Below, one piece after another: positions 3,853 to 21,560 of a stretch of DNA of 64,000 nucleotides (position 1 is its first letter; every line of letters begins with the position of its first letter). Below the pieces are notes generated by a model that worked only from the letters and a program-made list of their open reading frames with translations, did no database searches and had not been told where the DNA came from. The DNA comes from Mesorhizobium sp. B2-8-5. Its GTDB lineage: Bacteria; Pseudomonadota; Alphaproteobacteria; Rhizobiales; Rhizobiaceae. The stretch lies in contig NZ_CP083951.1 in the NCBI RefSeq assembly GCF_006440675.2, positions 2,017,501-2,081,500 of the forward strand, given 5' to 3'. The translations under genes and the position numbers were made by a program.

Positions 3853-3876
3853 GTTTCACACTTTTTCCGGAATTGC
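3853..3876. repeat. Half copy of the GCAATTCC palindromic element, read as coding
   Basis: The sequence TTTCACACTTTTTCCGGAATTGC matches the right half of the palindromes at 1925, 25384 and 27724. On the minus strand it encodes the last residues (AIPEKV) and the stop codon of the MFS gene. Confidence 0.7.
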
Positions 3877-5103
3877 TCCAACCTCATGGTCCAACACGGT
3901 CATCACCTGGCCGCGCTTCTCAGGGCTGAAGCGGATGACGATGATGATGCAGACCGCGACCACACCGGCGAAGAGCGCCAGCGCGTAGCCATAGCTGCTG
4001 CCGGGCGCCTCGGCGATGCCCGCCTGGTACGGGCCGCCATAGGATGCCGCCAGATTGCCGGCCTGGTAGATGAAGCCGGGCAAGGTCGCGCGCACGGCGC
4101 CTGGCGAGAGCTCGTTGAGATGCACCGGGATGACTCCCCAGGCGCCCTGAACCGCCACCTGCATGACGAGGGCGCCGACGGCCAGCATGAAGGGTGTCGT
4201 CGAATAGGCCCATAGAGGCAGTGCCGGCAACGCGATCAGGCAAGCGAGCGTAATGGCATTGACGCGGCCGATCTTCTCGGAGAGCGCGCCGAAGGCCAGT
4301 CCGCCGACGATGGCGCCGATGTTGGCGACGATGGTGATCCAACTCACCGTATGCGGATCGAAGCTATGCTGCTTCTTGAGGAAGGTCGGATAGAGATCCT
4401 GCGTGCCGTGGCTGAAGAAGTTGAAGAACATCATCAGCACCACGGCATAGAGCGCGATGCCCCAGTGCTTCCGCAGCGTTTCGAGCAATCCTGGCTTCAC
4501 GCGCTGGCGGGCTTCGACGAAGGCTGGCGATTCCGGCACATGCGAGCGGATGAAAAGCACGATCAGCGCCGGTATGAAGCTCAGGAGGAACATGGCGCGC
4601 CAGCCGAAGGTGAAGTCGCCGATCTTCTGCCCGTAGAGCAGCCCGTAGACCACCGCGGCCAGCAGGTAGCCGGCCGGATAACCGCATTGCAGGATGCCCG
4701 AGACCATGCCGCGCGCGCTTGGCGGAATGGACTCCATGGCAAGCGAGCTGCCGAGGCCCCATTCGCCGCCCATGGCGATGCCGAACAGGGCGCGCAGCGC
4801 CAGGAATATGCCGAGATTGGGCGAGAAGGCGGCTAAAGCGCCGATCACCGAATAGCTGACGATGTTCAGCATCAGAATGGGCTTGCGGCCGTATCTGTCG
4901 GCAAGCATGCCGAAGAAGAACGCGCCGATGAAGCGCGTGGCCAAGGTCAGGAACAGCGCTTTGGAGACCGCCGGCACGTCGGTCTGGAATTCCGTTGCAA
5001 TATCGGTGAGCAGGAAAGTCAGAAGGAAGAAATCAAAAGCGTCGAGCGTCCAGCCGAGGAACGACGCGAGTACGGTTTTCTTCTGCTCGGTGGTGAGGTT
5101 CAA
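3856..5103 (-). CDS. MFS transporter, NanT/metabolite-proton symporter type
   Basis: A 415-residue major facilitator with about 12 membrane helices. The opening LGWTLDAFDFFLLTFLL, the loop motif ADRYGRKP after helix 2 and the matching SEKIGRVN after helix 8 place it with sialate/shikimate-type proton symporters; the substrate is not readable. The start is TTG at 5103, supported by a strong AAGGAGG six bases upstream, and no ATG alternative fits. It is the last gene of the long minus-strand locus, 94 bases after the Dabb gene, so it may carry the same or a related compound as the ABC importer. Its last residues come from a palindromic repeat. Confidence 0.85.
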   Translation of the reverse strand: MNLTTEQKKTVLASFLGWTLDAFDFFLLTFLLTDIATEFQTDVPAVSKALFLTLATRFIGAFFFGMLADRYGRKPILMLNIVSYSVIGALAAFSPNLGIFLALRALFGIAMGGEWGLGSSLAMESIPPSARGMVSGILQCGYPAGYLLAAVVYGLLYGQKIGDFTFGWRAMFLLSFIPALIVLFIRSHVPESPAFVEARQRVKPGLLETLRKHWGIALYAVVLMMFFNFFSHGTQDLYPTFLKKQHSFDPHTVSWITIVANIGAIVGGLAFGALSEKIGRVNAITLACLIALPALPLWAYSTTPFMLAVGALVMQVAVQGAWGVIPVHLNELSPGAVRATLPGFIYQAGNLAASYGGPYQAGIAEAPGSSYGYALALFAGVVAVCIIIVIRFSPEKRGQVMTVLDHEVGAIPEKV

Positions 5104-5197
5104 GGCGGTCCTCCTTTTGCATCCCCCAAAAGCAACGATATGTTCCAGGGCGGGTAAAAGAGAACCGGACAGCTGCCGGTTTTAAGCCGGCGAGCGG

Positions 5198-5515
5198 TCA
5201 CATTTGCGTCACCTCGAGATCGATGACCATCAGCCCCTCGGTGCCGCCTTCGAGGGCGGCAACCAGACGGGCGCCGGCGCGCTGATGCGCTTCGTGCACC
5301 AGATAGGCGTCGCGCGCGGCGGCATTTTTAAAGTCGATGGTGAAGCCGTGGCTGAAGCCGCGCGCGAACGGCTCCGGGCTGACATTGGCGCTGAATTCCA
5401 CCTTGCCCATGCCGTCGACGACGGCGCGCAGCGCTTCGAGATCGGCGTGGATCGCCGCCCGCTCGGTTTCAGGAACGTCGTCGCGAAAGCGGACAAAGAC
5501 GCAGTGACGGATCAT
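5198..5515 (-). CDS. Dabb (stress-responsive alpha/beta barrel) domain protein
   Basis: A 105-residue single-domain protein. MIRHCVFVRFRDDV at the start, the central FSHGFTIDFKNAAARDAYLVHEAHQ and the closing VIDLEV are typical of the Dabb dimeric ferredoxin-like fold. The ATG at 5515 was chosen because the family begins with a strand of this form; the open frame upstream lies inside the GMC gene. The start is 10 bases after the GMC stop. Members are small enzymes or binding proteins of unknown role often found in sugar and aromatic catabolic clusters, which fits this context. Confidence 0.8.
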   Translation of the reverse strand: MIRHCVFVRFRDDVPETERAAIHADLEALRAVVDGMGKVEFSANVSPEPFARGFSHGFTIDFKNAAARDAYLVHEAHQRAGARLVAALEGGTEGLMVIDLEVTQM

Positions 5516-5525
5516 TATCGGTGCC

Positions 5526-7154
5526 TCACGCCGCCTGGTTGCCCTTGAACACGGCCGGCGGCAGCGGCTCGCGGCCGAGAATGAGGTCGGCACCTTTTTC
5601 ACCGACCATGATCGTCGGCGCATTGGTGTTGGAGGACGGGACGCGCGGCATCACCGATGCATCGCAGATCCGGAGACCTTCGATGCCGCGCAGCCTCAAG
5701 TCCGGCGTCACCACGGCCATCGCATCATGGCCCATGCGGCAGGTGCCGACGGGGTGATGATCGGTCTTGGAGGTGCGATAGGCATAGTCGGTGAGGTCGG
5801 CATCGCTCTCTAGGTTTGGCCCGGGCAGCACCTCGCGAAGTACGTAGGGGGCAAGCGCCTTCTGCCGCATGATCTCGCGCGCCAATCTAAGGCCCTTGAT
5901 CGACATGTCGCGATCATAGGGATCGGACCAGTAGTTCGGATCGATGAGCGGATGATCGGCCGGGTCGGCGCTCTTCAGCCGCACCGTGCCGCGCGAGCGC
6001 GGACGCAGGAAGGCCGAGTTCAGCGTCACGCCAGGGTTCTTCAGTTTTTCCACGCCGGCCTCGATGCCGGAGCCGAGGCCCAAATGGAACTGGATGTCGG
6101 GGGAGGCGGCCGTCGGGTCGGCGTACCAGAAGCCGCCGGTCTCGAACAGGCTCGAGGCGACCGGCCCCTTCTTGAGCAGCAGGTACTGCAGACCGGCCCA
6201 TAGGGTGCGGTGCAGCTTGGCGTAATTGTCGTAGGTGTGGTCGCCGGTGCATTCGGCGATCACGAACAGGTCGAGATGGTCCTGCATGTTGGAGCCGACG
6301 CCGGGCAGGTCGTGAACGGGCGTGACGCCGACCGATTTCAAATGGTCGGCCGGGCCGATGCCCGACTGCATGAGGAGCTTGGGCGAACCGATGGCGCCGG
6401 AGGAAACGATCACCTCGCGTTCGGCGCGCAGGATCGTCTTTTCGCCGCCAGGTCTGTCGACCACCTCGACACCGATGGCGCGGCCCTTCTCGACGACGAC
6501 GCGGGTGACCAGCACATCGGTCCTGACCGTCAGGTTCTTGCGGGCGCCGATCGGCTTCAGATAGGCGACGGAGGCGGATGAGCGCCGCGCATTCTTTTGG
6601 GTCAGCTGATAGTAGCCGACGCCCTCCTGGCTGGCGCCGTTGAAATCCGGGTTGAAGGGTATGCCCATTTCCTGGCCCGCGCGGAAATAGGCCTCGCAGA
6701 TCGGCAGCGGCGAGATCGGGTTGGAGACGCCGAGCGGTCCTTGGTCGCCGTGAAAATCGTTGGCAAAACGTTGGTTGTTTTCGGCGCGCTTGAAATAGGG
6801 CAGCACGTCGCGATAGCCCCAGCCGGCGAGGCCGTCCTCCTTCTCCCAGGCGTCGTAGTCGCGGGCATTGCCGCGCGTGTAGATCTGCGCGTTGATCGAC
6901 GAGCCGCCGCCGACGACCTTGGCTTGCGTGTACCAGAAGACGCGGTCCTTCATGTGCTTCTGCGGTACGGTCGACCAGCCCCAGGAGGCGATGCCCTTGG
7001 TCATCTTGGCGAAGCCCGCCGGCATGTGGATATAGGGATGCCAATCCTTGCCGCCGGCCTCGAGCAGCAGGACGGAATTCGACGGATCCTCGCTCAGCCG
7101 GTTGGCGAGAACGCAGCCGGCCGGACCGGCGCCAACAATGATGTAATCAGCCAT
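5526..7154 (-). CDS. GMC family FAD-dependent oxidoreductase (choline dehydrogenase-like)
   Basis: A 542-residue glucose-methanol-choline flavoenzyme. The N-terminal dinucleotide fold has GAGPAG at 8-13 with Glu32 for the ribose. The GMC signature VVGGGSSINAQIYTRGN follows near residues 75-92, and the C-terminal active site shows DHHPVGTCRMG, then SNTNAPTIMVGEKGADLI with the His/Asn pair. It should oxidise a primary or secondary alcohol; choline is only the nearest familiar substrate. AGGAAC precedes the ATG. It starts six bases after the SDR stop, so the two are translationally linked and probably act on successive intermediates. Confidence 0.88.
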   Translation of the reverse strand: MADYIIVGAGPAGCVLANRLSEDPSNSVLLLEAGGKDWHPYIHMPAGFAKMTKGIASWGWSTVPQKHMKDRVFWYTQAKVVGGGSSINAQIYTRGNARDYDAWEKEDGLAGWGYRDVLPYFKRAENNQRFANDFHGDQGPLGVSNPISPLPICEAYFRAGQEMGIPFNPDFNGASQEGVGYYQLTQKNARRSSASVAYLKPIGARKNLTVRTDVLVTRVVVEKGRAIGVEVVDRPGGEKTILRAEREVIVSSGAIGSPKLLMQSGIGPADHLKSVGVTPVHDLPGVGSNMQDHLDLFVIAECTGDHTYDNYAKLHRTLWAGLQYLLLKKGPVASSLFETGGFWYADPTAASPDIQFHLGLGSGIEAGVEKLKNPGVTLNSAFLRPRSRGTVRLKSADPADHPLIDPNYWSDPYDRDMSIKGLRLAREIMRQKALAPYVLREVLPGPNLESDADLTDYAYRTSKTDHHPVGTCRMGHDAMAVVTPDLRLRGIEGLRICDASVMPRVPSSNTNAPTIMVGEKGADLILGREPLPPAVFKGNQAA

Positions 7155-7160
7155 TGTTCC

Positions 7161-7922
7161 TCACAAGCGTGGCACGGAGAGCGCGCCGTCGACATCGATG
7201 ACCGATCCGGTCGAAAAGCCGAACTTTCCGGAGGCAAGCGCGGCCACGACGGCCCCGATATCGGCGCCTTCGCCCCAGCGTTTTGCCGGCACCAGGCCGC
7301 TTTCGATCAGCGCGTCATATTTGGCGGAAACGCCCGCCGTCATATCGGTTCGGATGATGCCCGGCCGTACCTCGAACACGCCGATTTTTTCAGCCGCGAG
7401 TCGCAGCGCCAGGTTCTTCACCCACATGGATAGGCCGGCTTTCGAGACGCAGTAGTCGGCGCGCTCCGGCGAGGCCATGGCGGCGCTCACCGAAGTGATG
7501 GTGATGATCGACCTGGCTGAAACGGCAGGCGTCGCCAGCATGGCCTTGGCGACGGCTTGGCTGAGGAACACCGTGCCGCGCAGGTTGATGCCTAATGCGC
7601 GGTCGAAATTCTCCGGCTTCAGGTCCAGCAAGTCGCCGCGCATGACGGCTCCGACGCCGGCATTGTTGACCAGGCAGCCGATGTGGCCGAAGGCTTTGGT
7701 CGCAGCATCAACGAGTGCAGCATGGCCTGCGAGATCAGCGATGTCGCAGCGATGGTAGGCAAACTTCGCGCCGCGCTTGGTGATGTTGGAGGCCAGATTG
7801 ACATCGGGCTTCTCGGCAAGGTCGGCGATCAGAATGTCGAAGCCGGCGTCGGCCAATGCCTCGGCACAAGCGAGCCCAATTCCGCGCGCGCCGCCGGTGA
7901 TAATGGCCGCCGGGCGGGTCAT
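7161..7922 (-). CDS. SDR family NAD(P)-dependent oxidoreductase
   Basis: A 253-residue classical short-chain dehydrogenase. TGGARGIG at 9-16 is the nucleotide-binding motif, NNAG is at 86-89, and the catalytic Tyr157-x3-Lys161 (YCVSK) is present with the expected upstream Ser. Asp34 ends the second strand, which usually indicates NAD(H). The C-terminal FSTGSVIDVDGAL is typical of 3-oxoacyl-reductase-like members annotated FabG, but the catabolic setting makes a sugar or polyol dehydrogenase more likely. It is separated from the upstream GMC gene by a 250-bp gap with a RIME-like repeat. Confidence 0.85.
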   Translation of the reverse strand: MTRPAAIITGGARGIGLACAEALADAGFDILIADLAEKPDVNLASNITKRGAKFAYHRCDIADLAGHAALVDAATKAFGHIGCLVNNAGVGAVMRGDLLDLKPENFDRALGINLRGTVFLSQAVAKAMLATPAVSARSIITITSVSAAMASPERADYCVSKAGLSMWVKNLALRLAAEKIGVFEVRPGIIRTDMTAGVSAKYDALIESGLVPAKRWGEGADIGAVVAALASGKFGFSTGSVIDVDGALSVPRL

Positions 7923-7952
7923 TGGAGACTAGCCTTGCGAATGTCAGCGCTG

Positions 7953-8159
7953 CCCCTCATCGCCCTGCCCGTCCTCCGCAGCAGCTGCGCTGCAGCTGCG
8001 GAGGGTGGACCGGGCACTTCTCCCCGTATAGTGACGGCGAGAAGGATGCTGTCGCCGGCGCTTTCTCCAATCGCCAGCGCTGCAGAATGAGTGCCAGCGT
8101 TGCGGCTAGCCCTCTTCTTCCCGTTTACGGGGAGAAGGTGCCGGCAGGCGGATGAGGGG
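7953..8159. repeat. RIME-like element bounded by inverted ends
   Basis: A 207-bp block between two minus-strand genes. Its ends are inverted copies: CCCCTCATCGCCCTGCCCG on the left against the complement of CGGCAGGCGGATGAGGGG on the right. Inside are a hairpin at about 7973-8006 built on CCTCCGCAGC and CTGCGGAGG, and two CTTCTCCCCGT / ACGGGGAGAAGG stems. The arrangement matches rhizobial intergenic mosaic elements. No coding potential is seen. It may form mRNA structure inside the locus. Confidence 0.7.
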
Positions 8160-8172
8160 CGGCGCCGGCCTA

Positions 8173-9675
8173 TCATGAGGAAAGCTCCGTCCTGCGGATG
8201 TGGTCGGCGACGCGCAGCGCCTGCGCCCCGATCGACAGCGCCGGATTGACGGCGGCCGATGTCGGCAGGAAGCCGCCGTCGACGACGTAGAGGTTCTGGT
8301 GGTCCCAGGCGCGGCAGAGCGGATCGAGCGGCGAGGTGGCTGGCTCGTTGCCCATCTTCACCGTGCCGCACTGATGCGAGGGCGTGCGCTTGTCGAAGGG
8401 GCGCGACAGCACGATCGGATAGCCGCAGGCGCGAAGGTTCTCGCGCATCACCTTGGACAGGCCTTCCAGCGACTGCATGTTGGAGCGCCGCCACTGCATG
8501 ACGATCTCCTTGCCGTCGACCATGATGCGGCTTTCCGGATCGGGAAGGTCCTCGCACATCAGGTACCAGTCGACGGCGTGGCCGGCCATGTAGTCGAGCG
8601 CGAATTTCGGCATCGTCTTCACATTGGCCTTGAGCATGTTGCCGTCGATCTTGCCGAGCAGTTGCACATTGCCGAGCGGCTTGCCGCCCTTGCCGTCGGA
8701 CAGATAGTAGTCGTTGAGCATCAGCGTCTTCTGGTAGACGCTATCGTTGCGGCGGCGCGGATCGATCGCCAGCATCGCGCTCGAATTGTGGTTCATGAAA
8801 TTGCGCCCGACCTGATCGGAGCTGTTGGCGAGGCCTTTACCGTTGGCCGAAGGCGAGCGCAGCAGGATGGCGGCCGAGTTGATCGCGCCGGCGGAGAGGA
8901 TCGCCAGCTTCGGCGACAGCGTCTTTTGCGCACCGTTCTGGGTATAGTGGATGGCGGCGATCGACTTGCCGTCCGGCGCGGTTTCGAGCCAGTCGACATA
9001 GGCGCCGGTTTCGAGCCGGATGTTCGGATCCTTCAGCGCTTCGGTCAGCGGACCGGTCTGCGCGTCGATCTTGCCCTGGCCGGTGTTGGGAAATGCGTCC
9101 CAGCCCGTCTTGCCGTCTTTCAGCCAGGTCTCGATGTCGACGCCGAGCGGCAGCGATGCCGGATGCAGTCCGAGGCTCTTCAACTCGGCGCGGGCGCGCG
9201 CGATCGGCGGCTCGTCCGGCACCGGCTGGAAGGCGTAGGGGATCGAATGGAACGGCTCGGTCGGATCCTCGCCGAGCGTGCCGCGCACGCGAAAAAGCTG
9301 CTCGGCTTTCGAATACCAGGGCTCGAACTCGTCATAGGAAAACGGCCAGGCCGGCGAGACGCCGCCGAAATGCTCGAGCTCGGCAAAATCCTCCTTGCGG
9401 TAGCGGATCAGGACCGCGCCGAAGAACTTCGAATTGCCGCCGACATAGTAGTAGTTGCCGGGGTTGAAGGCAGCACCGCCGGCCTCGCGCCACATCTCCT
9501 TCGGCCGGTAGTGCTCGTCGACGAAGATGGAACGCGTCGAGCGCGCATGTGGTGTCGCGGGCAGCGGTTCGCCACGCTCCAGGATCAGGATCGAGGCGCC
9601 GCTGCCGGCCAAGCCGGAGGCGATCGTGGCGCCGCCGATGCCGGAGCCGATGATGACGATATCCGGATTTTTCAT
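8173..9675 (-). CDS. GMC family oxidoreductase (second, divergent copy)
   Basis: A 500-residue flavoenzyme unlike the first GMC gene. GSGIGGATIASG near residues 9-20 begins the FAD fold and Glu follows in LILERGE. GGNSKFFGAVLIRYR replaces the usual GMC signature. The C-terminus has SHQCGTVKMG, then VDGGFLPTSAAVNPALSIGAQALRVADHI, giving the His/Asn catalytic pair. The form recalls the sugar-oxidising GMC branch (gluconate dehydrogenase or pyranose-oxidase-like) rather than choline dehydrogenase. The ATG at 9675 starts the Rossmann strand. Neither signal peptide nor cytochrome partner is seen. It follows the ABC ATPase by 61 bases containing a palindrome. Confidence 0.85.
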   Translation of the reverse strand: MKNPDIVIIGSGIGGATIASGLAGSGASILILERGEPLPATPHARSTRSIFVDEHYRPKEMWREAGGAAFNPGNYYYVGGNSKFFGAVLIRYRKEDFAELEHFGGVSPAWPFSYDEFEPWYSKAEQLFRVRGTLGEDPTEPFHSIPYAFQPVPDEPPIARARAELKSLGLHPASLPLGVDIETWLKDGKTGWDAFPNTGQGKIDAQTGPLTEALKDPNIRLETGAYVDWLETAPDGKSIAAIHYTQNGAQKTLSPKLAILSAGAINSAAILLRSPSANGKGLANSSDQVGRNFMNHNSSAMLAIDPRRRNDSVYQKTLMLNDYYLSDGKGGKPLGNVQLLGKIDGNMLKANVKTMPKFALDYMAGHAVDWYLMCEDLPDPESRIMVDGKEIVMQWRRSNMQSLEGLSKVMRENLRACGYPIVLSRPFDKRTPSHQCGTVKMGNEPATSPLDPLCRAWDHQNLYVVDGGFLPTSAAVNPALSIGAQALRVADHIRRTELSS

Positions 9676-9690
9676 AGATCTTTGTTTTGC

Positions 9691-9736
9691 TGCATGTCGT
9701 TGCCCCAAAACCGGACCCACTTTTGGGCGACAGGCA
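9691..9736. repeat. REP-like palindrome, TGCATGTCG arm type
   Basis: Nested inverted repeat with outer arms TGCATGTCG / CGACAGGCA and inner arms CCCCAAAA / TTTTGGG. Its core (AAAACCGGACCCACTTTT) is shared with the elements at 36622 and 47181. It sits directly downstream of the ABC ATPase stop codon. Confidence 0.75.
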
Positions 9737-10852
9737 TCAGAGGATGCGCTTCTCGGTCGCGGGGTCGAAGAACACCGCCTTGCTGAGGTTGAAGGCTAAA
9801 GGCGTGCTGGTGCCGGGCTGGATCCTGGCATCGGCCCGCAGCCGCGCCACGACGCCCTTGCCGCCCAGATTGGTGACGGCGAAAGTATCCGATCCCGCCG
9901 GCTCCACCACTTCGATGTGGCAGTCGGCGGTGGCGATGTTCGAACCGTTGCGCTCGGCGCCTTCCGGGTCGGTCAGCGCCTCGGGGCGCACGCCGAAGAT
10001 CACCTGCTTGTCCTTGAACGCCGACAGGCCCGCAGGCGCGGCGGGCATGGGCAGCACGATCGGCTGGCGCGCGTCGCGGTCCAGCACCACCGACAGCCCG
10101 CTGCCATTGCCGTCGATCTTGGCCGGGATCAGGTTCATCGCCGGCGAGCCCATGAAGTCGGCGACGAAGATGTTGGTCGGGTTGTTGTAGATTTCGGCCG
10201 GCGTGCCGAATTGCTGCACCTCGCCGTCGCGCATGACGGCGATCTTGGTCGCCAGCGTCATCGCCTCGATCTGGTCGTGCGTGACGTAGACGATGGTCGT
10301 GCCGGTCGTGGCGTGCAGGCGCTTGATCTCGATGCGCATGTCGACGCGCAGCTTGGCGTCCAGGTTGGAGAGCGGCTCGTCGAACAGGAAGAGTTTCGGG
10401 TCGCGCACCAGCGCCCGGCCCATGGCGACGCGCTGGCGCTGGCCACCGGAAAGCTGGCTGGGCTTGCGGTTGAGCAGGTGGCCGATCTGCAGAACCTTGG
10501 CCACCTTGTCGATCGCAGCCTGGCGCTCCGTCACCGGCACGCCGCGCATCTCCATGCCGAAAGCGATGTTGCCGGCCACCGTCATGTTCGGATAGAGCGC
10601 GTAGCTCTGGAACACCATGGCGATGTCGCGCTTCGAGGGATGCAGGTCGTTGATGGCGCGGCCGTCGACGCGGATCTCACCCTCGGTGATCTGCTCCAGG
10701 CCGGCGATGGTGTTGAGCAGCGTGGACTTGCCGCAGCCGGACGGGCCGACCAGCACGAGGAAGCCGCCCTTTTCGAGCTCGACATCGATGCCCTTCAGGA
10801 TCTCGACATTCCCGAAGCGCTTCTTCAGCCCATCAATTTCAAGAAAAGCCAT
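9737..10852 (-). CDS. ABC transporter ATP-binding protein, MalK/UgpC type
   Basis: A 371-residue ATPase for a carbohydrate importer. Walker A is GPSGCGKST near residue 36, the signature LSGGQRQRVAMGRALVRDP lies near 134, Walker B is LFLFDEPLSNLDAKLR near 154, and the switch His is in YVTHDQIEAMTLA. The C-terminal 130 residues form the MalK-type TOBE/regulatory domain, with GVRPEAL. The ATG at 10852 begins the canonical MAFLEIDGLKKRFG; the longer open frame upstream is inside the permease gene. It is the fourth gene of an SBP-permease-permease-ATPase set and should energise sugar uptake. Confidence 0.93.
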   Translation of the reverse strand: MAFLEIDGLKKRFGNVEILKGIDVELEKGGFLVLVGPSGCGKSTLLNTIAGLEQITEGEIRVDGRAINDLHPSKRDIAMVFQSYALYPNMTVAGNIAFGMEMRGVPVTERQAAIDKVAKVLQIGHLLNRKPSQLSGGQRQRVAMGRALVRDPKLFLFDEPLSNLDAKLRVDMRIEIKRLHATTGTTIVYVTHDQIEAMTLATKIAVMRDGEVQQFGTPAEIYNNPTNIFVADFMGSPAMNLIPAKIDGNGSGLSVVLDRDARQPIVLPMPAAPAGLSAFKDKQVIFGVRPEALTDPEGAERNGSNIATADCHIEVVEPAGSDTFAVTNLGGKGVVARLRADARIQPGTSTPLAFNLSKAVFFDPATEKRIL

Positions 10853-10875
10853 GATCGTTCCTTCAGAAAATAGGG

Positions 10876-11820
10876 TCAGCCCTTGACCGCGCCCGCCATC
10901 AGCCCGCGCACGAAATAGCGGCCGGCGACGACATAGACGATCAGTGTGGGGAGCGCCGCAATCATCGCCGCCGCCATGTTGACGTTGTATTCGACGACGC
11001 CGGTCGAAGTATTGACGACATTGTTCAGCGCCACCGTCATCGGCATCACGTCGCCGGAGCCGGCATAGGCGGAGGCGAACAAGAAGTCGTTCCAAATGTT
11101 GGTGAACTGGTAGATCACCGTCACAACGATGATCGGCAGCGAATTGGGCAGCATGATGCGCCGGAAGATCTGGAAGAAGGAGGCGCCGTCGACCTGTGCC
11201 GCCTTGACCAGTTCGGTCGGGAAGGCCTCGTAATAATTGCGGAAGAAAAGCGTGGTGAAGCCGAGGCCGTAGACCACGTGGACGAAGACGAGATTGACGG
11301 TCGAATTGCCGAGGCCGAAATTAAAGCCGGTGGCGTTCTGCAGGGTGACACCGAAGCGGCCAAGGCTGCCCAGAATCGTTGCCATCGGCAACAGCACCGA
11401 CTGGAATGGAATGAAGCAGGCGAACAGCATCATGGCGAAGACCAGCGTGTGGCCGCGGAAGCGCCATTTGGTCAGCACATAACCGTTGAGTGCGCCAAGC
11501 AGCGTCGAGATCAGCACCGCCGGCACGACCATCTTGATGGAGTTCCAGAAGTAGCCCTTCATGCCGACGCAAGTCAGGCCCGAGCAAACTTCGCTCCATG
11601 CCTTTATCCATGGTGCGAAGGTCGGCGCATGCGGCAGCGACAGCATGTTGCCGTTCTGGATCTCGTCCATGGTCTTGAACGAGGTGACGAGCATGACGAA
11701 GAGCGGCATCAAGTAGAAGATCGCGAACAGCGCGAGCAGCCCGTAGATGACGATGCGGTTGAGCGTCCTGGCGCGGACGCTGCTTGCGGCCTGGCGGGCG
11801 GGTGAAGTGACGGCGCTCAT
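10876..11820 (-). CDS. Carbohydrate ABC transporter permease, MalG type
   Basis: A 314-residue inner-membrane subunit with about six helices after a 25-residue cytoplasmic lead. The EAA loop AAQVDGASFFQIFRRIMLPNSLPII, which contacts the ATPase, is clear in the second half. The extended periplasmic region between helices 1 and 2 contains two Cys (SEVCSGLTCVG), as in glucose-type permeases (GtsC group). Its ATG overlaps the stop of the other permease by four bases, so the two subunits are translationally coupled. Confidence 0.92.
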   Translation of the reverse strand: MSAVTSPARQAASSVRARTLNRIVIYGLLALFAIFYLMPLFVMLVTSFKTMDEIQNGNMLSLPHAPTFAPWIKAWSEVCSGLTCVGMKGYFWNSIKMVVPAVLISTLLGALNGYVLTKWRFRGHTLVFAMMLFACFIPFQSVLLPMATILGSLGRFGVTLQNATGFNFGLGNSTVNLVFVHVVYGLGFTTLFFRNYYEAFPTELVKAAQVDGASFFQIFRRIMLPNSLPIIVVTVIYQFTNIWNDFLFASAYAGSGDVMPMTVALNNVVNTSTGVVEYNVNMAAAMIAALPTLIVYVVAGRYFVRGLMAGAVKG

Positions 11821-12776
11821 CGCGACTTCTCCCTGAGCTCGGAGTAGAGATACGGAACGATGATGGCCGTGATGGTCATCAGCATGATCACCGCGCTTGC
11901 CGAGCCGACCGCCATTTCGTTGCGCTTGAAGGTGAACTCATACATGAAGTTGGAGGGCAGCCAGGCCGAGCCGCCGGGGCCGCCGCTGGTCAGCGCCACC
12001 ACCAAGTCATAGGACTTGATTGCGAGGTGCGCGAGCACGATGAAGGCCGACAGGAAGACGGGCCGCAGCAGCGGGATGACGATGCGGCGGTAGAGCTGGA
12101 AGGTGGATGCGCCGTCGATCTGCGCCGCCTTCATGATCTCGCCGTCGATGCCGCGAAGCCCGGCCAGGAACATCGCCATGACGAAGCCGGAAGCCTGCCA
12201 GACGCCGGCGATCACCACCGTGTAGATGACGAAATCCTTGTTCTTGATCCAGTCGAAGTGGAAGCCCGTCCAGCCCCATTGATGCAGCGTCTGTTCCAGC
12301 CCGAGGCCGGGGTCGAGGAACCACTTCCAGGCGACGCCGGTGACGATGAAGGAGAGCGCCATCGGGTAGAGGTAGATCGGCCTCAAGACACCTTCGCCGC
12401 GGATCTTCTGGTCGAGCAGAATGGCCAGGAACAGGCCGAGCGTCAGGCAGATTCCGATATAAAGGAAGCCGAAGATGCCCATATTGGTGATCGAGGTGTA
12501 CCAGCTCGACGGCGGGTCGCTCTCGAAGGTCCAGCGCCATAGCCGCTGATAGGCGCGGGGACCGGTGATGGCATAGGACGGGAAGGTCTTGGAATTGGTG
12601 AAGGACAGATAGATCGTCCACAGGATGAAGCCGTAGACGAAGACGATCGTCGCCGCGAAGCTTGGCGCCAACACGATCTTCGGCAGCAGGTCCTGCAGCC
12701 GCGAACGGACCGACGCGCCAGGCCGGGCGTCGTGCTCCGGTGTCAGCTTGATCTGGGTTTCGGCAACTGTGCTCAT
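11817..12776 (-). CDS. Carbohydrate ABC transporter permease, MalF type
   Basis: A 319-residue inner-membrane subunit with about six helices. The EAA loop AAQIDGASTFQLYRRIVIPL is followed by the last two helices. The region WRWTFESDPPSSWYTSITNMGIFG between helices 1 and 2 is characteristic of the glucose/mannose importer group. It overlaps the MalG-type gene by four bases. It is separated from the binding-protein gene by 128 bases with a GC-rich hairpin, an arrangement that commonly lets the binding protein be made in excess. Confidence 0.92.
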   Translation of the reverse strand: MSTVAETQIKLTPEHDARPGASVRSRLQDLLPKIVLAPSFAATIVFVYGFILWTIYLSFTNSKTFPSYAITGPRAYQRLWRWTFESDPPSSWYTSITNMGIFGFLYIGICLTLGLFLAILLDQKIRGEGVLRPIYLYPMALSFIVTGVAWKWFLDPGLGLEQTLHQWGWTGFHFDWIKNKDFVIYTVVIAGVWQASGFVMAMFLAGLRGIDGEIMKAAQIDGASTFQLYRRIVIPLLRPVFLSAFIVLAHLAIKSYDLVVALTSGGPGGSAWLPSNFMYEFTFKRNEMAVGSASAVIMLMTITAIIVPYLYSELREKSR

Positions 12777-12859
12777 CGGCTTGTCCAGTACCGGTTTGTC
12801 ACGGGACCGACCGGCGCGAACCGCGCCAGCCCGAGCAATCCCGGACCTTGCTTCGGTAG

Positions 12860-12890
12860 GAGACCTCCCCCGCCAGGGCAGGGGAGGCTC
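12860..12890 (-). promoter_or_regulatory. Intra-operon hairpin after the binding-protein gene
   Basis: GAGACCTCCCC (12860-12870) pairs with GGGGAGGCTC (12881-12890) with one bulged A. There is no T-run, so it more likely stabilises the upstream mRNA or partly stops transcription than acts as a full terminator. It lies just after the SBP stop codon. Confidence 0.55.
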
Positions 12891-12904
12891 AGTTCAAGGC
12901 ACGC

Positions 12905-14158
12905 TTACTTTGCGTCGTCGATCGCTTTGACCAGCTCGGTCACGGCTTCGTCGGAGGTCTTGATCTGACCATGGACGAACTTCGACACGACATCCTTGTA
13001 GGCGTTGGCGACGGCCGGCGGGGCGCCGTAGCCCTGCGCCAGTGAGCCGAACAACGTGCCGCCTTCATTGGCCTTCTTCAGGTCGGCGATGCCCTTCTTG
13101 CCGCAAGCGTCGAAGTCGGTGTCCGGCACGTCGGTGCGGGCCGGGACAGAACCCTTCACCACGTTGAAGGCCGACTGGAAGCTCTTCGACAGGGTGGCAG
13201 TGGCCAGAGCGACCTGGGCGGCCTTGCGGTCGTCCGGAACGTTGAACATGCCGAACATGTCGGAGTTGTAGATCACCGAGCCGTCGGTGCCCGGGAAGCG
13301 ATAGCAGAGGAAGTCGGTGCCCGGGGTCTTGTTGGCGGCGTGGAACTCGCCCTTGGCCCAGTCGCCCATGACCTGAACCAGCGCGTCGCCCTTGATGACC
13401 ATGGCGGTGGCGAGGTTCCAGTCGCGGCCCGAGAAGTTCGGGTCGACATAGGTGACCAGCTTGGCGAGGTTGTCGAACGACTTCTTCATCGTGTCGGACT
13501 TGAGCGACTCTTCATCGAGGTCGTTCATCGCCTTCTTGTAAAACTCCGGACCGCCGGTCGACAGCACGACGGAGTCGAACATGGTGGCTTCCTGCCAGTT
13601 CTGGCCGCCGAGTGCCAGCGGGGTGACGCCGGCCGCCTTGGCCTTGTCGAGCAGGGCCACGAAGTCGTCGAAGGTCTTCGGCTCGGTGCCGCCGATCTTG
13701 TCCATCACCGCCTTGTTGATCCACAGCCAGTTGACCGAGTGGACGTTGACCGGAGCCGCGACCCACTTGCCGTCATAGACGGAGAACTTCTGCAGGGCGG
13801 CCGGAACCGACTTGTCCCAGCCTTCCTTCTTGGCGGTCTCGGTCAGGTCGCCCATGACGCCGGCGGCGGCGTAGTCGAGCACGGTGTAGCCGAGCATCTG
13901 CGATGCGGTCGGATAGTTGCCGGCCGCGACCATCGCCTTCAGCGCGGTCATGGCGGCGTCGCCGCCGCCGCCGGCCACCGGCACGTCCTTCCAGGCATAG
14001 CCTTCCTTGGCCAGATCCTGCTTCAGCACGTTCAGAGCAGCCGCTTCGCCGCCCGACGTCCACCAATGCAGCATCTGCACTTCCTTGACGTCCGCGGCAT
14101 GCGCCGAGAACGCAAAGCTCGTCGCAAGAGCCGTTCCGATAAGCAGTTTGCGCAACAT
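12905..14158 (-). CDS. Sugar ABC transporter substrate-binding protein (glucose-type)
   Basis: A 417-residue periplasmic binding protein. Residues 1-21 form a signal peptide ending SAHA before the mature [12 protein letters not shown]. The motif [19 protein letters not shown] and later [19 protein letters not shown] are those of family-1 extracellular binding proteins of the GtsA/glucose-mannose group. A GGGAGG six bases before the ATG fixes the start. The four Trp/Gly-rich loops expected for stacking on a sugar ring are present. The ligand is therefore probably a hexose-like sugar or derivative, but the genes beside it argue for an unusual one. The gene follows the aldehyde dehydrogenase by 58 bases. 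Confidence 0.9.
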
Positions 14159-14216
14159 GTACTACCTCCCTTGTTGCATACACATAACCGGCGGGTGTCC
14201 GCCGGGGTCTCCCAAC

Positions 14217-15728
14217 TCAGCCGACCCACCACCCGGTGCGCTGGCCGCGATGAAACTGGATGGTCTTTTCCTCGGTATAGTCCTCGACTGCGCGCTTGCC
14301 GAGTTCGCGTCCCAGACCGGACTGCTTGTAGCCGCCGAAGGGCAGTTCGGGATAACCTTCCATGAACGTATTCACCCAAACCGTCCCCGAACGCACACCG
14401 CGCGCCACCGACATGCACGTGTCGACGCCGGCGCTCCACACCCCTGCAGACAAACCATAGGGCGTGTTGTTGGCAATGTGCAATGCCTTTTCAATCGTTT
14501 CAAAAGTGAGCACGGACAGCACCGGCCCGAACACTTCCTCGCGCGCGATCGCCATATCCTCTGTAACGTTACGGATGATGGTCGGATCGAGATATTGGCC
14601 GGCATTGGATGCAAGCCGGGCGCCGCCGGTGAAAACGTTGCCGCCGTCGGTTTTCGCCGCCGTTACATAGCCGGCTACCTTTTCCACATGATCGGCCGAG
14701 ATCATCGCGCCGACCTTGGTGCGGTCGTCGAGCGGATCGCCGACGCGGACCTTCCCGGCCAGCGCCTTGACCGCGTTGAGGAAGTCGTCGGCAATCGCCT
14801 CATGCACGATCAGGCGGCTGCCGGCATTGCAGCATTCGCCGGCGTTGAAGAAGCCGCCGAACACTGCGGCATCCGCCGCGGCTTCGAGGTCGGCGTCGGG
14901 GAAGACTATCTGGCCGTTCTTGCCGCCGAGCTCCATCGAGACCTTCTTCAAGGAATCGGAAGCGGCCGCCATGGTCATCTTGCCGACACGGGTCGAGCCG
15001 GTGAAGGACACCATCTCGACCAGCGGATGGCTGACCATCGGCGCGCCGACATCGGCGCCGAAGCCGGCAAGGATGTTGACGACGCCTGCAGGAAGCCCTG
15101 CCTCGAGCAGGATGTCGCCGAGCACGAAGGTCGAGGCCGACGTCATCTCGCTCGGCTTCACCACCGCCGTGCAGCCGGCGGCGAGCGCGAAGGGCAGCTT
15201 CTGGCTGACGATCAGGAAGGGGAAATTCCACGGCGTGATGATCGAGACGACGCCGATCGGCTCGCGCAGCACGACGCCCAGCATATCGTCGCCGAGATTG
15301 GCGTAGCTTTCGCCATGCAGCGTGCGGGCGAGCGAGGCGGCATAGCGCCAGATGTCGATCGCGCCGCCGATCTCGCCGCGCGCCTGGGCGATCGGCTTGC
15401 CGGATTCCAGCGCATCGAGGCGGGCGATCTCTTCCAGCCGAGTCTCGATCAGGTCGGCCGTCTTCAGCAGGACCGCCGCGCGTTCCGATGCTTTCATGCG
15501 CGGCCACGGGCCGGTCTCGAAAGCCTTGTGCGCCGCCTGAACCGCAGCGTCGACGTCCGCTGCGCCTGCTCGCGCATAGCGGGACACGACAAAGCCATGG
15601 CCGGGGCTGGCGCGCTCGATCGCGCGGCCATCGCGCGCTTCGATATGCTTGCCGTCGATCAGGAGCTTGTAGGTCTTGGGCGCCTGGGACGCCTCGGCCG
15701 GCATGGCAATGTTGAGGGGTGCGTTCAT
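14217..15728 (-). CDS. NAD(P)-dependent aldehyde dehydrogenase
   Basis: A 503-residue aldehyde dehydrogenase. TPWNFPFLI and KPSEMTSAS mark the nucleotide-binding domain, FTGSTRVGK the glycine motif, and MELGGKN carries the general-base Glu. The catalytic Cys is in FNAGECCNAGSR, about residue 305. This form (GECCNAGSR rather than GQVCSAGTR) occurs in betaine/aminobutyraldehyde-like members. It converts an aldehyde to an acid and starts 10 bases after the crotonase gene, so it likely works in the same pathway. The specific aldehyde is not readable. Confidence 0.9.
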   Translation of the reverse strand: MNAPLNIAMPAEASQAPKTYKLLIDGKHIEARDGRAIERASPGHGFVVSRYARAGAADVDAAVQAAHKAFETGPWPRMKASERAAVLLKTADLIETRLEEIARLDALESGKPIAQARGEIGGAIDIWRYAASLARTLHGESYANLGDDMLGVVLREPIGVVSIITPWNFPFLIVSQKLPFALAAGCTAVVKPSEMTSASTFVLGDILLEAGLPAGVVNILAGFGADVGAPMVSHPLVEMVSFTGSTRVGKMTMAAASDSLKKVSMELGGKNGQIVFPDADLEAAADAAVFGGFFNAGECCNAGSRLIVHEAIADDFLNAVKALAGKVRVGDPLDDRTKVGAMISADHVEKVAGYVTAAKTDGGNVFTGGARLASNAGQYLDPTIIRNVTEDMAIAREEVFGPVLSVLTFETIEKALHIANNTPYGLSAGVWSAGVDTCMSVARGVRSGTVWVNTFMEGYPELPFGGYKQSGLGRELGKRAVEDYTEEKTIQFHRGQRTGWWVG

Positions 15729-15738
15729 CGTCTCTTCT

Positions 15739-16507
15739 CTAGGATCTCGAAAAGGCCGGTTTCTGCTTGGCCTTGAAGGCGCTAACGCCGGTTTTCAGGT
15801 CGGCGGTGAGCGCTATGAAACCACTGGCCAGCGCCTCGGTCGCGGCGGCGTTTTCCTCGCCCTCGGCAATGCCGATCATCAGCTTGGCGGCCTCGGTTGC
15901 CAGCGGCCCGCGCTCGGCGATTTTTTCTGCCCAAGCTTTCGCTTCGTCGAACGCCTTGCCGGTTTCTACGACACGGTCTACGACGCCGATCGCAAGCGCG
16001 TCAGGGGCCAGCAAAATCTCGCCACCCAGCGCCATGCGCCGCACCACTTGCGCGCCAAAGCGGCGCACGGCGCGCTGCGTGCCGGACCAGCCGGGCACGA
16101 CGCCGATAGAGGTTTCCGGGAAGCCCAGCTTCACCTGGGTTTCGGCGACGCGGAAATCGCAGGCCGCCGCCAGTTCCAGCCCGCCGCCCAGCGCATGGCC
16201 GGACAGCACCGCGATGGTCGGCTGCCGCAGGCGCGCCAGCCGGTCGAAGACGCGGTGGCCGTAGCGGACCCATTGCACCTGGAAATCGGCCGCGCTCATC
16301 GTCCCCCAGGCCTCGACGTCGCCGCCGGCGCAAAAGCCCTTGCCTTCGCCACCGATGAGCACGGCGCGAACGCCCTCGGCCAGTTCCGCTTCGTCAAGTG
16401 CTGCTTCGAGCGCACGCAGCATCGGAATGTCGAGCGCGTTGAATTTATCCGGCCGCCGCAGCGTGATGTTGCCGACGGCGCCGTCCTGTTCGAAGGTGAC
16501 GAGATGC

Positions 16508-16515
<8 letters not shown>
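15739..16515 (-). CDS. Enoyl-CoA hydratase/isomerase family protein
   Basis: A 258-residue crotonase. The oxyanion-hole segments GEGKGFCAGGDVEAW and SGHALGGGLELAAACD are present, and both glutamates used in hydration (in GGGLELA and in GFPETSIGVVPG) are conserved, so a true hydratase is plausible. It overlaps the CoA-transferase gene by 8 bases, which implies that the acid activated by that enzyme is the substrate here. A related activity such as isomerase or C-C hydrolase cannot be excluded. Confidence 0.88.
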
Positions 16516-20162
<3,647 letters not shown>

Positions 20163-20199
20163 CCTCGTCCCGTCCTCCGTGTTTTTTGAACGAATTTAT

Positions 20200-20211
20200 T
20201 GGAACGTTCTA
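20200..20211. promoter_or_regulatory. Operator O1 for the LacI-family regulator
   Basis: TGGAACGTTCTA, an 11/12 palindrome with central CG as LacI-family proteins prefer. It lies 38 bp upstream of the regulator start codon and covers the candidate -10 (TAGAAC on the minus strand, 20206-20211). Its partner O2 differs by one base. Confidence 0.75.
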
Positions 20212-20235
20212 ATCATCGTTCGAAATCAGAGTCAA
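20206..20235 (-). promoter_or_regulatory. Candidate sigma-70 promoter of the lacI-type gene
   Basis: On the minus strand TTGACT (20235-20230), an 18-bp spacer and TAGAAC (20211-20206). The -10 is inside O1, so binding there should block transcription. Confidence 0.5.
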
Positions 20236-20265
20236 TTGCGATTCCGATAAGATTCAAAAAATTGA

Positions 20266-20279
20266 TTGGAGCGGTTCAA
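20266..20279. promoter_or_regulatory. Degenerate operator-like site O3
   Basis: TTGGAGCGGTTCAA keeps the outer half-site bases of O1/O2 but is asymmetric in the centre. It lies between them and could be an auxiliary site; weak evidence. Confidence 0.3.
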
Positions 20280-20356
20280 AATCTCAATGAATGCAAGGAC
20301 TATCCTCTAGAGACACGATGCTTCACCGGCTGGGGCGCCTTGAATCATAAAGGTTC

Positions 20357-20385
20357 TTGATTTATTGGAACGTTCCATTTATAGC
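20357..20385 (+). promoter_or_regulatory. Sigma-70 promoter of the DUF993 gene with operator O2 in the spacer
   Basis: TTGATT (20357-20362), a 17-bp spacer and TATAGC (20380-20385). The perfect palindrome TGGAACGTTCCA (20367-20378) fills the spacer. The distance between O1 and O2 centres is 167 bp, close to 16 helical turns, so one tetramer could bridge them. Confidence 0.7.
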
Positions 20386-20405
20386 GGCCGCAACGGGAGA
20401 GTTCC

Positions 20406-21560
20406 ATGGACATCATCTTGCCTGCGGCAAACCGCGGCCGGGTCAGCTACCGGCTCGTCGGCAAACCGATCGAACCGAGCATGGGCGCGCGATTTTCACG
20501 CATCGCCTATGCCGCCGCCCATGTCGTTGCCGATCCCATCGCCATGACCAATCCCTGGTCTCGGCCAGCGGTCGACTGGGACAGGACGATGGCGTTTCGC
20601 CATCATCTGTGGCGGCTCGGCTTCCGCATCGCCGAGGCCATGGACACGTCCCAGCGCGGCATGGGTTTCGACTGGGCGAGCGCGAAGGAACTGATCCGAC
20701 GCTCGATCGCGGAGGCTAAAACGGTGCCGGGCGCCGACCTCGCATCGGGGGCGGGGACAGATCATCTGGCGCCGGCTGCGGCCAAGACGGTCGACGACGT
20801 CATCCGCGCCTATGAAGACCAGTTCGCCTTCATTGAAGGCGAGGGCGGCAAGGCGATCATGATGGCGAGCCGCGCTCTGGCGGCGGTGGCCAAGGGGCCT
20901 GACGATTATGCCCGCGTCTACGACCGCATGCTCTCCCAGGCGTCCGGCAAGGTCATCCTGCATTGGCTGGGCGACATGTTCGATCCAGCGCTTAAGGGCT
21001 ACTGGGGCAGCAACGATTTCGACTCGGCGCTCGACACGGTCGTCGCCATCATCGAGCGGCATGCGGGCAAGGTCGAGGGCATCAAGATATCGCTGCTCGA
21101 TGCCGAGAAGGAAGTGCTGCTGCGCGACCGGCTGCCCGAGGGCGTCGTGATGTTCACGGGCGACGATTTCAATTATCCGGAGCTGATCACGGGGGACGGC
21201 AAGAGGCATTCGCACGCACTGCTCGGCATCTTCGACGCCATCGCACCCGTGGCAAATGCCGCACTGGCGAAGCTGGCAGAAGGCGATAAGACCGGTTACG
21301 ACGCGTTGATGGCGCCGACCGTGCCGCTGTCGCGCAAGATCTTCGAAGCGCCGACCGAATACTACAAGGCCGGCATCGTCTTCATGGCATGGCTGAACGG
21401 GCATCAGGATCATTTCACGATGGTCGGAGGCATGCAGTCGGCGCGCGGCATATGCCATTACGCGGACGTCTTCCGGCTCTCCGACCAGGCCGGCCTGCTG
21501 GCAGACCCCGATCTTGCTACCGCCAGGATGAAGGCACTGCTGGCGACGGCGGGCGTCTGA
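20406..21560 (+). CDS. DUF993 family, dihydrodipicolinate-synthase-like aldolase
   Basis: A 384-residue protein of the DUF993 group, a TIM-barrel family related to class I pyruvate aldolases of the DapA type. EGIKISLLD with Lys227 is positioned like the Schiff-base lysine of DapA, and TGDDFNYPELITG (251-263) corresponds to the following 'GDD' strand-loop. No member function is known to me. It is transcribed away from the catabolic operon under a shared operator pair, so an aldol cleavage or dehydration in the same pathway is a reasonable inference. The ATG at 20406 follows GGGAGAG by a few bases. A short hairpin (21565-21581) follows the stop. Confidence 0.85.
   Translation: MDIILPAANRGRVSYRLVGKPIEPSMGARFSRIAYAAAHVVADPIAMTNPWSRPAVDWDRTMAFRHHLWRLGFRIAEAMDTSQRGMGFDWASAKELIRRSIAEAKTVPGADLASGAGTDHLAPAAAKTVDDVIRAYEDQFAFIEGEGGKAIMMASRALAAVAKGPDDYARVYDRMLSQASGKVILHWLGDMFDPALKGYWGSNDFDSALDTVVAIIERHAGKVEGIKISLLDAEKEVLLRDRLPEGVVMFTGDDFNYPELITGDGKRHSHALLGIFDAIAPVANAALAKLAEGDKTGYDALMAPTVPLSRKIFEAPTEYYKAGIVFMAWLNGHQDHFTMVGGMQSARGICHYADVFRLSDQAGLLADPDLATARMKALLATAGV

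What the first reader, a model, noticed from the sequence alone, without database searches (positions are those of the whole stretch)
3856..21560. LacI-controlled 15-gene catabolic locus of unknown substrate
Fourteen minus-strand genes from the LacI regulator to the MFS carrier run in one direction with overlaps or short gaps, and a DUF993 gene diverges from them. The set combines sugar-type uptake (glucose-group ABC), sugar-type oxidation (Gfo/Idh/MocA, SDR, two GMC flavoenzymes) and acid-CoA chemistry (CoA-transferase, crotonase, aldehyde dehydrogenase). This pairing of sugar oxidation with CoA-thioester hydration does not match any standard pathway I know, such as inositol, deoxyribonate or levoglucosan. 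The module may define a new route in which an oxidised sugar or cyclitol is opened, activated with CoA and hydrated.
Basis: partly seen in the sequence, partly recalled or inferred. Interest (0 to 1): 0.75.

Follow-up and report, generated by a model that had tools for sequence, protein, structure and literature searches.

The report
Likely operon for breaking down anhydro-sugars
A soil bacterium carries a conserved 15-gene set that probably imports 1,5-anhydro sugars (plant and starch-derived sugars lacking the usual reactive end) and dismantles them through an unusual coenzyme-A route, which would supply candidate genes for an aerobic pathway that has lacked them.

Summary
In detail: 14 minus-strand genes plus a diverging DUF993 gene at 3856-21560 of a Mesorhizobium genome. 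They form one unit, conserved in Mesorhizobium and, in recognisable order, in other families. The Gfo/Idh/MocA gene is a 1,5-anhydro-D-fructose reductase (AFR): 474 bits to the solved Sinorhizobium morelense AFR, next family 119 bits. In 151 same-family genomes all 32 AFR matches of 53% identity or more abut the CoA-transferase gene; outside the family 16 of 20 inspected do. I propose aerobic catabolism of 1,5-anhydro sugars. C6 is oxidised to an acid (GMC, ALDH) and made a CoA thioester; the crotonase then eliminates/hydrates, opening the ether ring. DUF993, a DHDPS-fold protein with an invariant lysine at the Schiff-base position, cleaves a late intermediate towards glycerate. AFR linkage is shown; substrate and steps are inferred. 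Against it: nine Mesorhizobium blocks lack AFR, and five core blocks lack AFR, SDR and DUF993.

The parts
19119..20162 (-). LacI-family regulator
   Evidence: Pfam LacI and Peripla_BP_3; first gene of the operon, diverges from DUF993
18106..19122 (-). 1,5-anhydro-D-fructose reductase (AFR), Gfo/Idh/MocA superfamily
   Evidence: 2glx AFR E 2.4e-141, 4koa AFR E 1.5e-138, next glucose-fructose oxidoreductase 119 bits; EKP and DITVHDADTLRF motifs kept
16508..18109 (-). Fused class-I CoA-transferase (YdiF/FadX type)
   Evidence: Pfam CoA_trans; YdiF 2ahu E 1.3e-110 with the Glu motif aligned
15739..16515 (-). Crotonase (enoyl-CoA hydratase/dehydratase type)
   Evidence: Pfam ECH_1; best solved relative 3-hydroxypropionyl-CoA dehydratase 5zai, both Glu positions aligned
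14217..15728 (-). Aldehyde dehydrogenase
   Evidence: Pfam Aldedh 561.6 bits
12905..14158 (-). Periplasmic sugar-binding protein
   Evidence: Pfam SBP_bac_1; 4r2b (Oant_3817, title 'with bound glucose') E 1.9e-165
11817..12776 (-). ABC permease 1
   Evidence: Pfam BPD_transp_1
10876..11820 (-). ABC permease 2
   Evidence: Pfam BPD_transp_1
9737..10852 (-). ABC ATPase (MalK/UgpC type)
   Evidence: Pfam ABC_tran, OB_MalK; NCBIfam UgpC over cut-off
8173..9675 (-). GMC flavoprotein 2, sugar-dehydrogenase-like; possible C2 oxidation of 1,5-anhydroglucitol (inference)
   Evidence: GMC_oxred_C and GMC_oxred_N; FAD glucose dehydrogenase 6a2u E 1.5e-29, fructose dehydrogenase, pyranose oxidase
7161..7922 (-). 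SDR dehydrogenase (PRK12745 '3-ketoacyl-ACP reductase' group)
   Evidence: NCBIfam NF009386 365.9 bits against cut-off 250
5526..7154 (-). GMC flavoprotein 1, choline-dehydrogenase-like; candidate C6 primary-alcohol dehydrogenase (inference)
   Evidence: Pfam GMC_oxred_N/C; NF002550 606 bits against cut-off 605; PDB hits
5198..5515 (-). Dabb-like small protein, follows GMC1 in several relatives too
   Evidence: 47% identical to an annotated Dabb family protein; seen next to GMC1
3856..5103 (-). MFS carrier
   Evidence: Pfam MFS_1; at this place in 6 of 6 same-genus genomes fetched
20406..21560 (+). DUF993 protein, DHDPS/NAL-fold, candidate Schiff-base lyase (Lys227)
20198..20213 (.). LacI-type operator candidate ATTGGAACGTTCTAAT
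   Evidence: near-palindrome in the divergent promoter; 75 of 75 diverging DUF993/LacI loci have two or more CG-centred near-palindromes
20364..20379 (.). LacI-type operator candidate ATTGGAACGTTCCATT
   Evidence: the core GGAACGTTC occurs only at these two places on the + strand of the 64 kb window

Best explanation
A LacI-controlled operon for aerobic use of 1,5-anhydro-hexoses (1,5-anhydro-D-fructose AF, 1,5-anhydro-D-mannitol AM, probably 1,5-anhydro-D-glucitol AG). SHOWN by sequence: AFR identity, its coupling to CoA-transferase and crotonase, block conservation, intact catalytic motifs, DUF993 fold. INFERRED: a glucose-type ABC system imports the pyranose. GMC2 oxidises AG at C2 to AF and AFR reduces AF to AM. 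GMC1 and ALDH oxidise the C6 CH2OH to an acid, and the CoA-transferase makes it a thioester. The thioester acidifies the alpha carbon (C5, which carries the ring oxygen), so the crotonase can expel the beta OH (C4); the resulting enol ether takes up water and the ring opens to a 2-keto-3-deoxy acyl chain. By stereochemistry drawn by hand, AM gives the 2-keto-3-deoxy-D-gluconate configuration (a D-glyceraldehyde end), whereas AG would give an L end, which would explain why a mannitol-forming reductase is in the operon. DUF993, with a ketone made by the SDR, cleaves the chain towards a C3 unit that ends as glycerate; glycerate kinase is linked in relatives. The order of SDR and DUF993 is not resolved.
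For: AFR: 474 and 465 bits to two solved AFRs, next family 119 bits; 69% identical to 2glx over 312 residues, and the gene in the Ensifer LC11 block is 86% identical to it. Linkage: in 151 same-family genomes 32 of 34 AFR matches (all 32 of 53% identity or more) adjoin the CoA-transferase gene (G051 and G107, G000). All 32 AFR genomes also have DUF993 (48 of 151 overall) and the CoA-transferase (42 of 151); Fisher P 4e-21 and 3e-24, not corrected for kinship. Outside the family 16 of 20 AFR loci inspected, of 24 found in 297 genomes of the order, adjoin CoAT-ECH. The SBP relative was solved with glucose bound. Crotonase nearest in PDB to a 3-hydroxyacyl-CoA dehydratase. Glycerate kinase lies in or next to L135, L136, L138, L148, L081, L234, L238, L240 and L242 and the pAO1 and Paracoccus loci. 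A review states that aerobic Rhizobiaceae reduce AF to AM (PMC12441222 section 5.1).
Against: No substrate was tested. Nine Mesorhizobium loci (eight long ones and L061) keep the other genes but lack AFR, and their genomes hold no close AFR elsewhere (best 44-46% in three, none at E 1e-40 in six). Core CoAT-ECH-ALDH-ABC-GMC2-GMC1 blocks without AFR, SDR or DUF993 occur in G396, G339, G407, G307 and G310; four of these genomes have no DUF993 at all. AFR homologues at 56-62% sit away from the CoA genes in four of 20 loci outside the family. The same review reports that AM is next hydroxylated at C1 by an unidentified P450-like enzyme to mannose, a different second step. DUF993 lacks the GTTGE carboxylate motif and the catalytic Tyr of DHDPS in a weak alignment (DTSQR and His186 stand there), so a simple KDG-aldolase role is doubtful.
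Confidence: 0.5

Rival explanations
1. The operon breaks down glucosides or other glucose-like pyranosides: the FAD enzymes and SDR oxidise the sugar ring, AFR acts on a 2-keto-sugar other than 1,5-anhydrofructose, and the CoA arm handles a uronic-type acid or an aglycone acid.
For: Binding protein relative has glucose bound; GMC2 resembles FAD glucose dehydrogenase; blocks without AFR exist.
Against: AFR-type reductase is adjacent to CoAT in 32 of 32 relatives of 53% identity or more in the family and the solved AFR is its near relative; no glycosidase among the Pfam matches of the block.
Confidence: 0.25
2. AFR feeds AM to a P450-type C1 hydroxylation giving mannose, as reported for S. morelense; the CoA genes serve a second substrate sharing the same regulator.
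For: Review text on Kuhn 2006 (PMC12441222); the original paper is not held.
Against: No P450 among the 15 genes and none in the window: the 6 PF00067 matches of the genome lie at 0.34, 4.27, 4.49, 4.74, 5.87 and 6.02 Mb, the window at 2.02-2.08 Mb; AFR overlaps the CoAT gene by 4 bases and is next to it in 48 of 52 AFR loci counted with the three (32 of 32 in the family, 16 of 20 outside).
Confidence: 0.15
3. Two or three functionally separate gene sets merely packed together.
For: Parts recombine: CoAT/ECH/ALDH/GMC1/SDR/DUF993 occur with a ribose-type ABC in the same genome; core blocks without AFR/SDR/DUF993; Gfo390-DUF993 pairs without a YdiF-type CoA-transferase beside them.
Against: Order and content conserved across genera and families; in Oryzibacter, where the block is split, AFR stays beside crotonase and LacI while CoAT-ALDH-GMC2-SDR-GMC1-DUF993 stay together.
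Confidence: 0.1

Closest known systems
1,5-anhydro-D-fructose reductase of Sinorhizobium morelense (PDB 2glx; species recalled for the entry) and the aerobic AF-to-AM step
   Same: Window Gfo gene is a close relative, 69% identical, motifs kept
   Different: Here it is the second gene of an uptake-plus-CoA operon; the published next step is a P450-like C1 hydroxylation (review PMC12441222), and no P450 is in the block
Anaerobic gut route for 1,5-anhydroglucitol and 1,5-anhydromannitol (PTS plus glycyl-radical YbiW/PflD), as described in PMC12441222 section 5.1
   Same: Same substrate class
   Different: No PFL-like gene in this genome and no PTS gene in the block; ABC uptake, flavin and CoA chemistry instead
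DHDPS/N-acetylneuraminate lyase superfamily (for DUF993)
   Same: TIM-barrel fold and Schiff-base Lys position
   Different: Tyr133 position is an invariant His186; GTTGE motif absent (weak alignment)
Oxidative deoxyribonate catabolism (PMC6365646, seen as search listing only; details recalled)
   Same: SDR oxidation, CoA chemistry and glycerate kinase, as I recall it
   Different: No BKACE (DUF849) gene in the block; CoA is put on by a YdiF-type transferase
pAO1 sugar cluster of Paenarthrobacter
   Same: ABC, GMC, ALDH, Gfo-type, DUF993, glycerate kinase
   Different: Gfo of another subfamily (about 23% identity), no CoA genes, no AFR

Membership tests
1,5-anhydro-D-fructose reductase | Closest to solved AFRs, far above other Gfo families | tested here: met
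   474/465 bits against 119 for the next
1,5-anhydro-D-fructose reductase | Gfo/Idh/MocA catalytic Lys (EKP) and His (DITVHDAD) kept | tested here: met
   the roles of the residues are recalled
1,5-anhydro-D-fructose reductase | Reduces AF to 1,5-anhydromannitol | not testable with these tools
   needs enzyme assay
Class-I CoA-transferase (YdiF type) | Both halves and active-site Glu motif | tested here: met
   2ahu aligned over 3-522 with VETGPIGG matched by IEQGAVGG; that this Glu is catalytic is recalled
Crotonase hydratase/dehydratase | Two catalytic Glu positions (GGGxE, PE) | tested here: met
   aligned with 5zai, positions; roles recalled
DHDPS/NAL class-I aldolase superfamily | TIM-barrel fold | tested here: met
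DHDPS/NAL class-I aldolase superfamily | Schiff-base lysine | tested here: met
   K227 invariant in 35 of 35 and aligned with K161 (hhalign probability only 44%, E 2e-4); chemistry not tested
DHDPS/NAL class-I aldolase superfamily | GTTGE carboxylate motif and catalytic Tyr133 (roles recalled) | tested here: not met
   alignment: DTSQR and His186 at these places; so filed as same fold, not as a known aldolase
P450 route from AM to mannose | P450 gene with AFR | tested here: not met
   no P450 in block or window; a distant P450 is not excluded
Anaerobic PTS/glycyl-radical 1,5-AG pathway | Glycyl-radical (PFL-like) gene | tested here: not met
   PF02901: no match in the whole genome, 3 of 14 control genomes ring; PTS genes were looked for only in the block
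Levoglucosan pathway | Levoglucosan dehydrogenase | tested here: not met
   the block's Gfo scores only 84 bits against cut-off 650 for NF052479

The most novel reading that the evidence does not exclude
Bacteria open the stable ether ring of 1,5-anhydro sugars by turning C6 into a CoA thioester and using a crotonase to eliminate across C4-C5, converting anhydroglucitol or anhydromannitol without oxygenase or radical chemistry into a 2-keto-3-deoxy-hexonyl chain. DUF993, a family with no assigned function, is the lyase that cleaves the product towards glycerate.
Probability: 0.3. Interest if true: 0.82.

Novelty: new variant of a known kind. Interest (0 to 1): 0.62.

Why it matters
1,5-Anhydroglucitol is present in most foods tested, and its 6-phosphate is the toxic metabolite behind neutropenia in GSDIb and G6PC3 deficiency (PMC12441222). 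The same review says that no aerobic oxidative pathway for it has been described and that lowering it by probiotics would need an enzyme that works under aerobic conditions. This block supplies concrete candidate genes. It would also give a first role to DUF993, present in 24 of 299 genomes sampled across the phylum, and a CoA-based way of opening a sugar ether ring.

Tried and rejected
Inositol, cyclitol and levoglucosan routes: the Gfo gene scores far below the cut-offs of those families (145 of 355 bits for inositol 2-dehydrogenase, 84 of 650 for levoglucosan dehydrogenase) and is AFR. IpdAB-like ring hydrolase (recalled) for the CoA-transferase: rejected because the YdiF-type Glu motif is kept. 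2-C-methylerythritol and the pAO1 'xylose' route as substrates: paper searches gave nothing usable among the rows listed. 'DUF993': no paper in the held library. S. meliloti tags: of the tags searched (SMc04132, 35, 38-42), SMc04132/35/38/39, with SMc04133 beside them, appear only in PMC12542648 (passages seen), as proteins lower in a phaR mutant background in TY medium; that these are the S. meliloti block is inferred from 4dnh = SMc04132. SMa1400-1416 search: one irrelevant hit. Searches for a published anhydro-sugar gene cluster in rhizobia showed only the review and AFR citations among the listed rows, which are part of the papers found; subscription papers are not held, so this is weak evidence of absence. 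The SBP structure job was wasted on a single sequence (pLDDT 38.7); only the entry title of its relative was used. hhalign of DUF993 against one DHDPS sequence failed and gave a weak match against five. Retro-aldol on a beta-keto-acyl-CoA by DUF993 was considered as an alternative and cannot be excluded. Near-palindromic sites alone are common (about 49% of 1,000 random 245-base draws have at least one); the operator claim rests on the repeated GGAACGTTC core.
Full report
OBSERVATION. The window lies in a 6.46 Mb single-contig genome. Of the 80 nearest loci 72 are titled Mesorhizobium, at up to 97% protein identity over the CoA-transferase, so I take it for a Mesorhizobium. LacI, AFR, CoA-transferase and crotonase overlap by 4, 4 and 8 bases.

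ONE UNIT. Of 74 loci of at least 21.5 kb from named genomes, 70 hold DUF993, 65 the Gfo gene, 72 ALDH, and 73-74 each of LacI, crotonase, SBP, permeases, ATPase, GMC2 and SDR. Of the four without DUF993, the three Chelativorans have one elsewhere in the genome; L059 was not followed. The far end (GMC1-Dabb-MFS) is the same in 6 of 6 same-genus genomes fetched. In genomes of other families the order Gfo-CoAT-ECH-ALDH-SBP-permeases-ATPase-GMC2-SDR-GMC1-DUF993-LacI recurs, in several with glycerate kinase after it. Two near-palindromic ATTGGAACGTTCCAAT-type sites lie in the divergent promoter; two or more CG-centred near-palindromes occur in all 75 loci with that arrangement, and the 24 loci printed all contain GGAACGTTC.

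SUBSTRATE CLUE. The Gfo/Idh/MocA protein matches the solved 1,5-anhydro-D-fructose reductases 2glx (474 bits) and 4koa (465 bits), and glucose-fructose oxidoreductase only at 119 bits, with its motifs kept. It is 69% identical to 2glx; the copy in the Ensifer LC11 block is 86% identical. Among 151 same-family genomes AFR relatives occur in 32; all 32 best copies (53% identity or more) stand next to the CoA-transferase gene, two distant paralogues in G051 (48% and 44%) do not (G000, G051 and G107). All 32 genomes also hold DUF993 and the CoA-transferase, against 16 and 10 of the 119 others (one of the 16, G413, is a short weak match; genomes are related, so the P values are only a guide). In 297 genomes of the order, 24 AFR matches lie outside the family; I inspected 20 of them: 16 have CoAT-ECH beside AFR and four (L295-L298) do not. 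Of the other four, G262 has CoAT-ECH beside it, G637 (by its coordinates the Oryzibacter genome) has crotonase and LacI but not CoAT, and G656 and G573 were not inspected. The binding protein's best relative was solved with glucose bound, which fits a 1-deoxyglucose ligand but does not prove it.

WHAT IS KNOWN. [quoted passage not shown] The block has no P450; the genome's six P450 matches are all more than 1.6 Mb away. The genome has no PFL-like gene.

MECHANISM (inference beyond the gene identities). A 1,5-anhydro sugar has no anomeric OH, so the ring ether must be broken otherwise. GMC1 and ALDH can oxidise C6 to the acid; the CoA-transferase makes the thioester; the crotonase, nearest in PDB to 3-hydroxypropionyl-CoA dehydratase, can then remove the beta OH (C4) with the alpha H (C5). 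The product is an enol ether at C5; adding water opens the ring. Because D-mannitol is two-fold symmetric, AM oxidised at C6 is 2,6-anhydro-D-mannonate and would give the 2-keto-3-deoxy-D-gluconate configuration; AG would give the epimer with an L-glyceraldehyde end. This would give the mannitol-forming AFR a purpose. GMC2 may make AF from AG. I worked this out by hand; no call tests it.

VARIANT BLOCKS. Seven AFR-less CoAT loci were fetched (L246-L252). In five (G396, G339, G407, G307, G310) SDR and DUF993 are missing from the block too; G396 has a DUF993 elsewhere, the other four genomes have none. G363 keeps SDR and has a DUF993 elsewhere; the G043 contig ends before the far genes. A 390-residue Gfo protein is in the G310 and G407 blocks and, by a 31% AFR-like match, in that of G339; FAD_binding_2 proteins of about 700 residues stand in or near the G310, G307 and G339 blocks.

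AGAINST. AFR is absent from the block in nine of the 74 long loci: eight Mesorhizobium and Oryzibacter; the shorter Mesorhizobium locus L061 lacks it too. The nine Mesorhizobium genomes have no close AFR elsewhere; Oryzibacter has one at another place, beside crotonase and LacI. AFR-less strains could use AM directly, but this could also mean that the true substrate is broader. No metabolite was tested.

VERDICT. A real, conserved operon. 1,5-anhydro-sugar catabolism is the best reading (about 0.5); the CoA ring-opening chemistry is a bolder and testable step (about 0.3).

Noticed in passing
L083 (G000:C1:6028000-6046000), same genome: A second, paralogous set: ribose-type ABC, ADH, ALDH (48% to the window's), GMC1 (51%), AKR, CoA-transferase (69%), crotonase (48%), diverging SPI-DUF993 (57%)-SDR (40%)-acyl-CoA dehydrogenase; a similar set is on S. 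meliloti pSymA with glycerate kinase and ETF (L095).
   Followed up: partly
L123-L128, L130 and several of L253-L265: Widespread three-gene core Gfo(390 aa)-DUF993-xylose-isomerase-like TIM barrel, often with TetR and an 'enolase'-annotated protein (the one scanned, in L086, has no Pfam match); no YdiF-type CoA-transferase beside it.
   Followed up: partly
L093 (Glaciihabitans plasmid): Gfo-DUF993-SPI-glycerate kinase beside a crotonase and a CaiB-type CoA-transferase: another family of CoA-transferase near DUF993.
   Followed up: no
L247, L267, L268, L270: AFR/SDR/DUF993-less versions of the block carry a different Gfo protein and/or a FAD_binding_2 protein of about 700 residues in or near the block, perhaps an alternative lower pathway.
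   Followed up: partly
L215 and L216 (G051:C27): A further cluster with two AFR paralogues (48% and 44%), glucose-type ABC, GMC and ALDH genes but no CoA-transferase found, perhaps for another anhydro or keto sugar.
   Followed up: no
window 7923-8172: The 250-base gap between SDR and GMC2 varies in length among Mesorhizobium loci and by eye looks as if it held small palindromic repeats.
   Followed up: no
L092 (pAO1 plasmid): The cluster whose aldehyde dehydrogenase carries the GO label D-xylose catabolism on pAO1 contains DUF993 and glycerate kinase; its assignment may deserve a second look.
   Followed up: no
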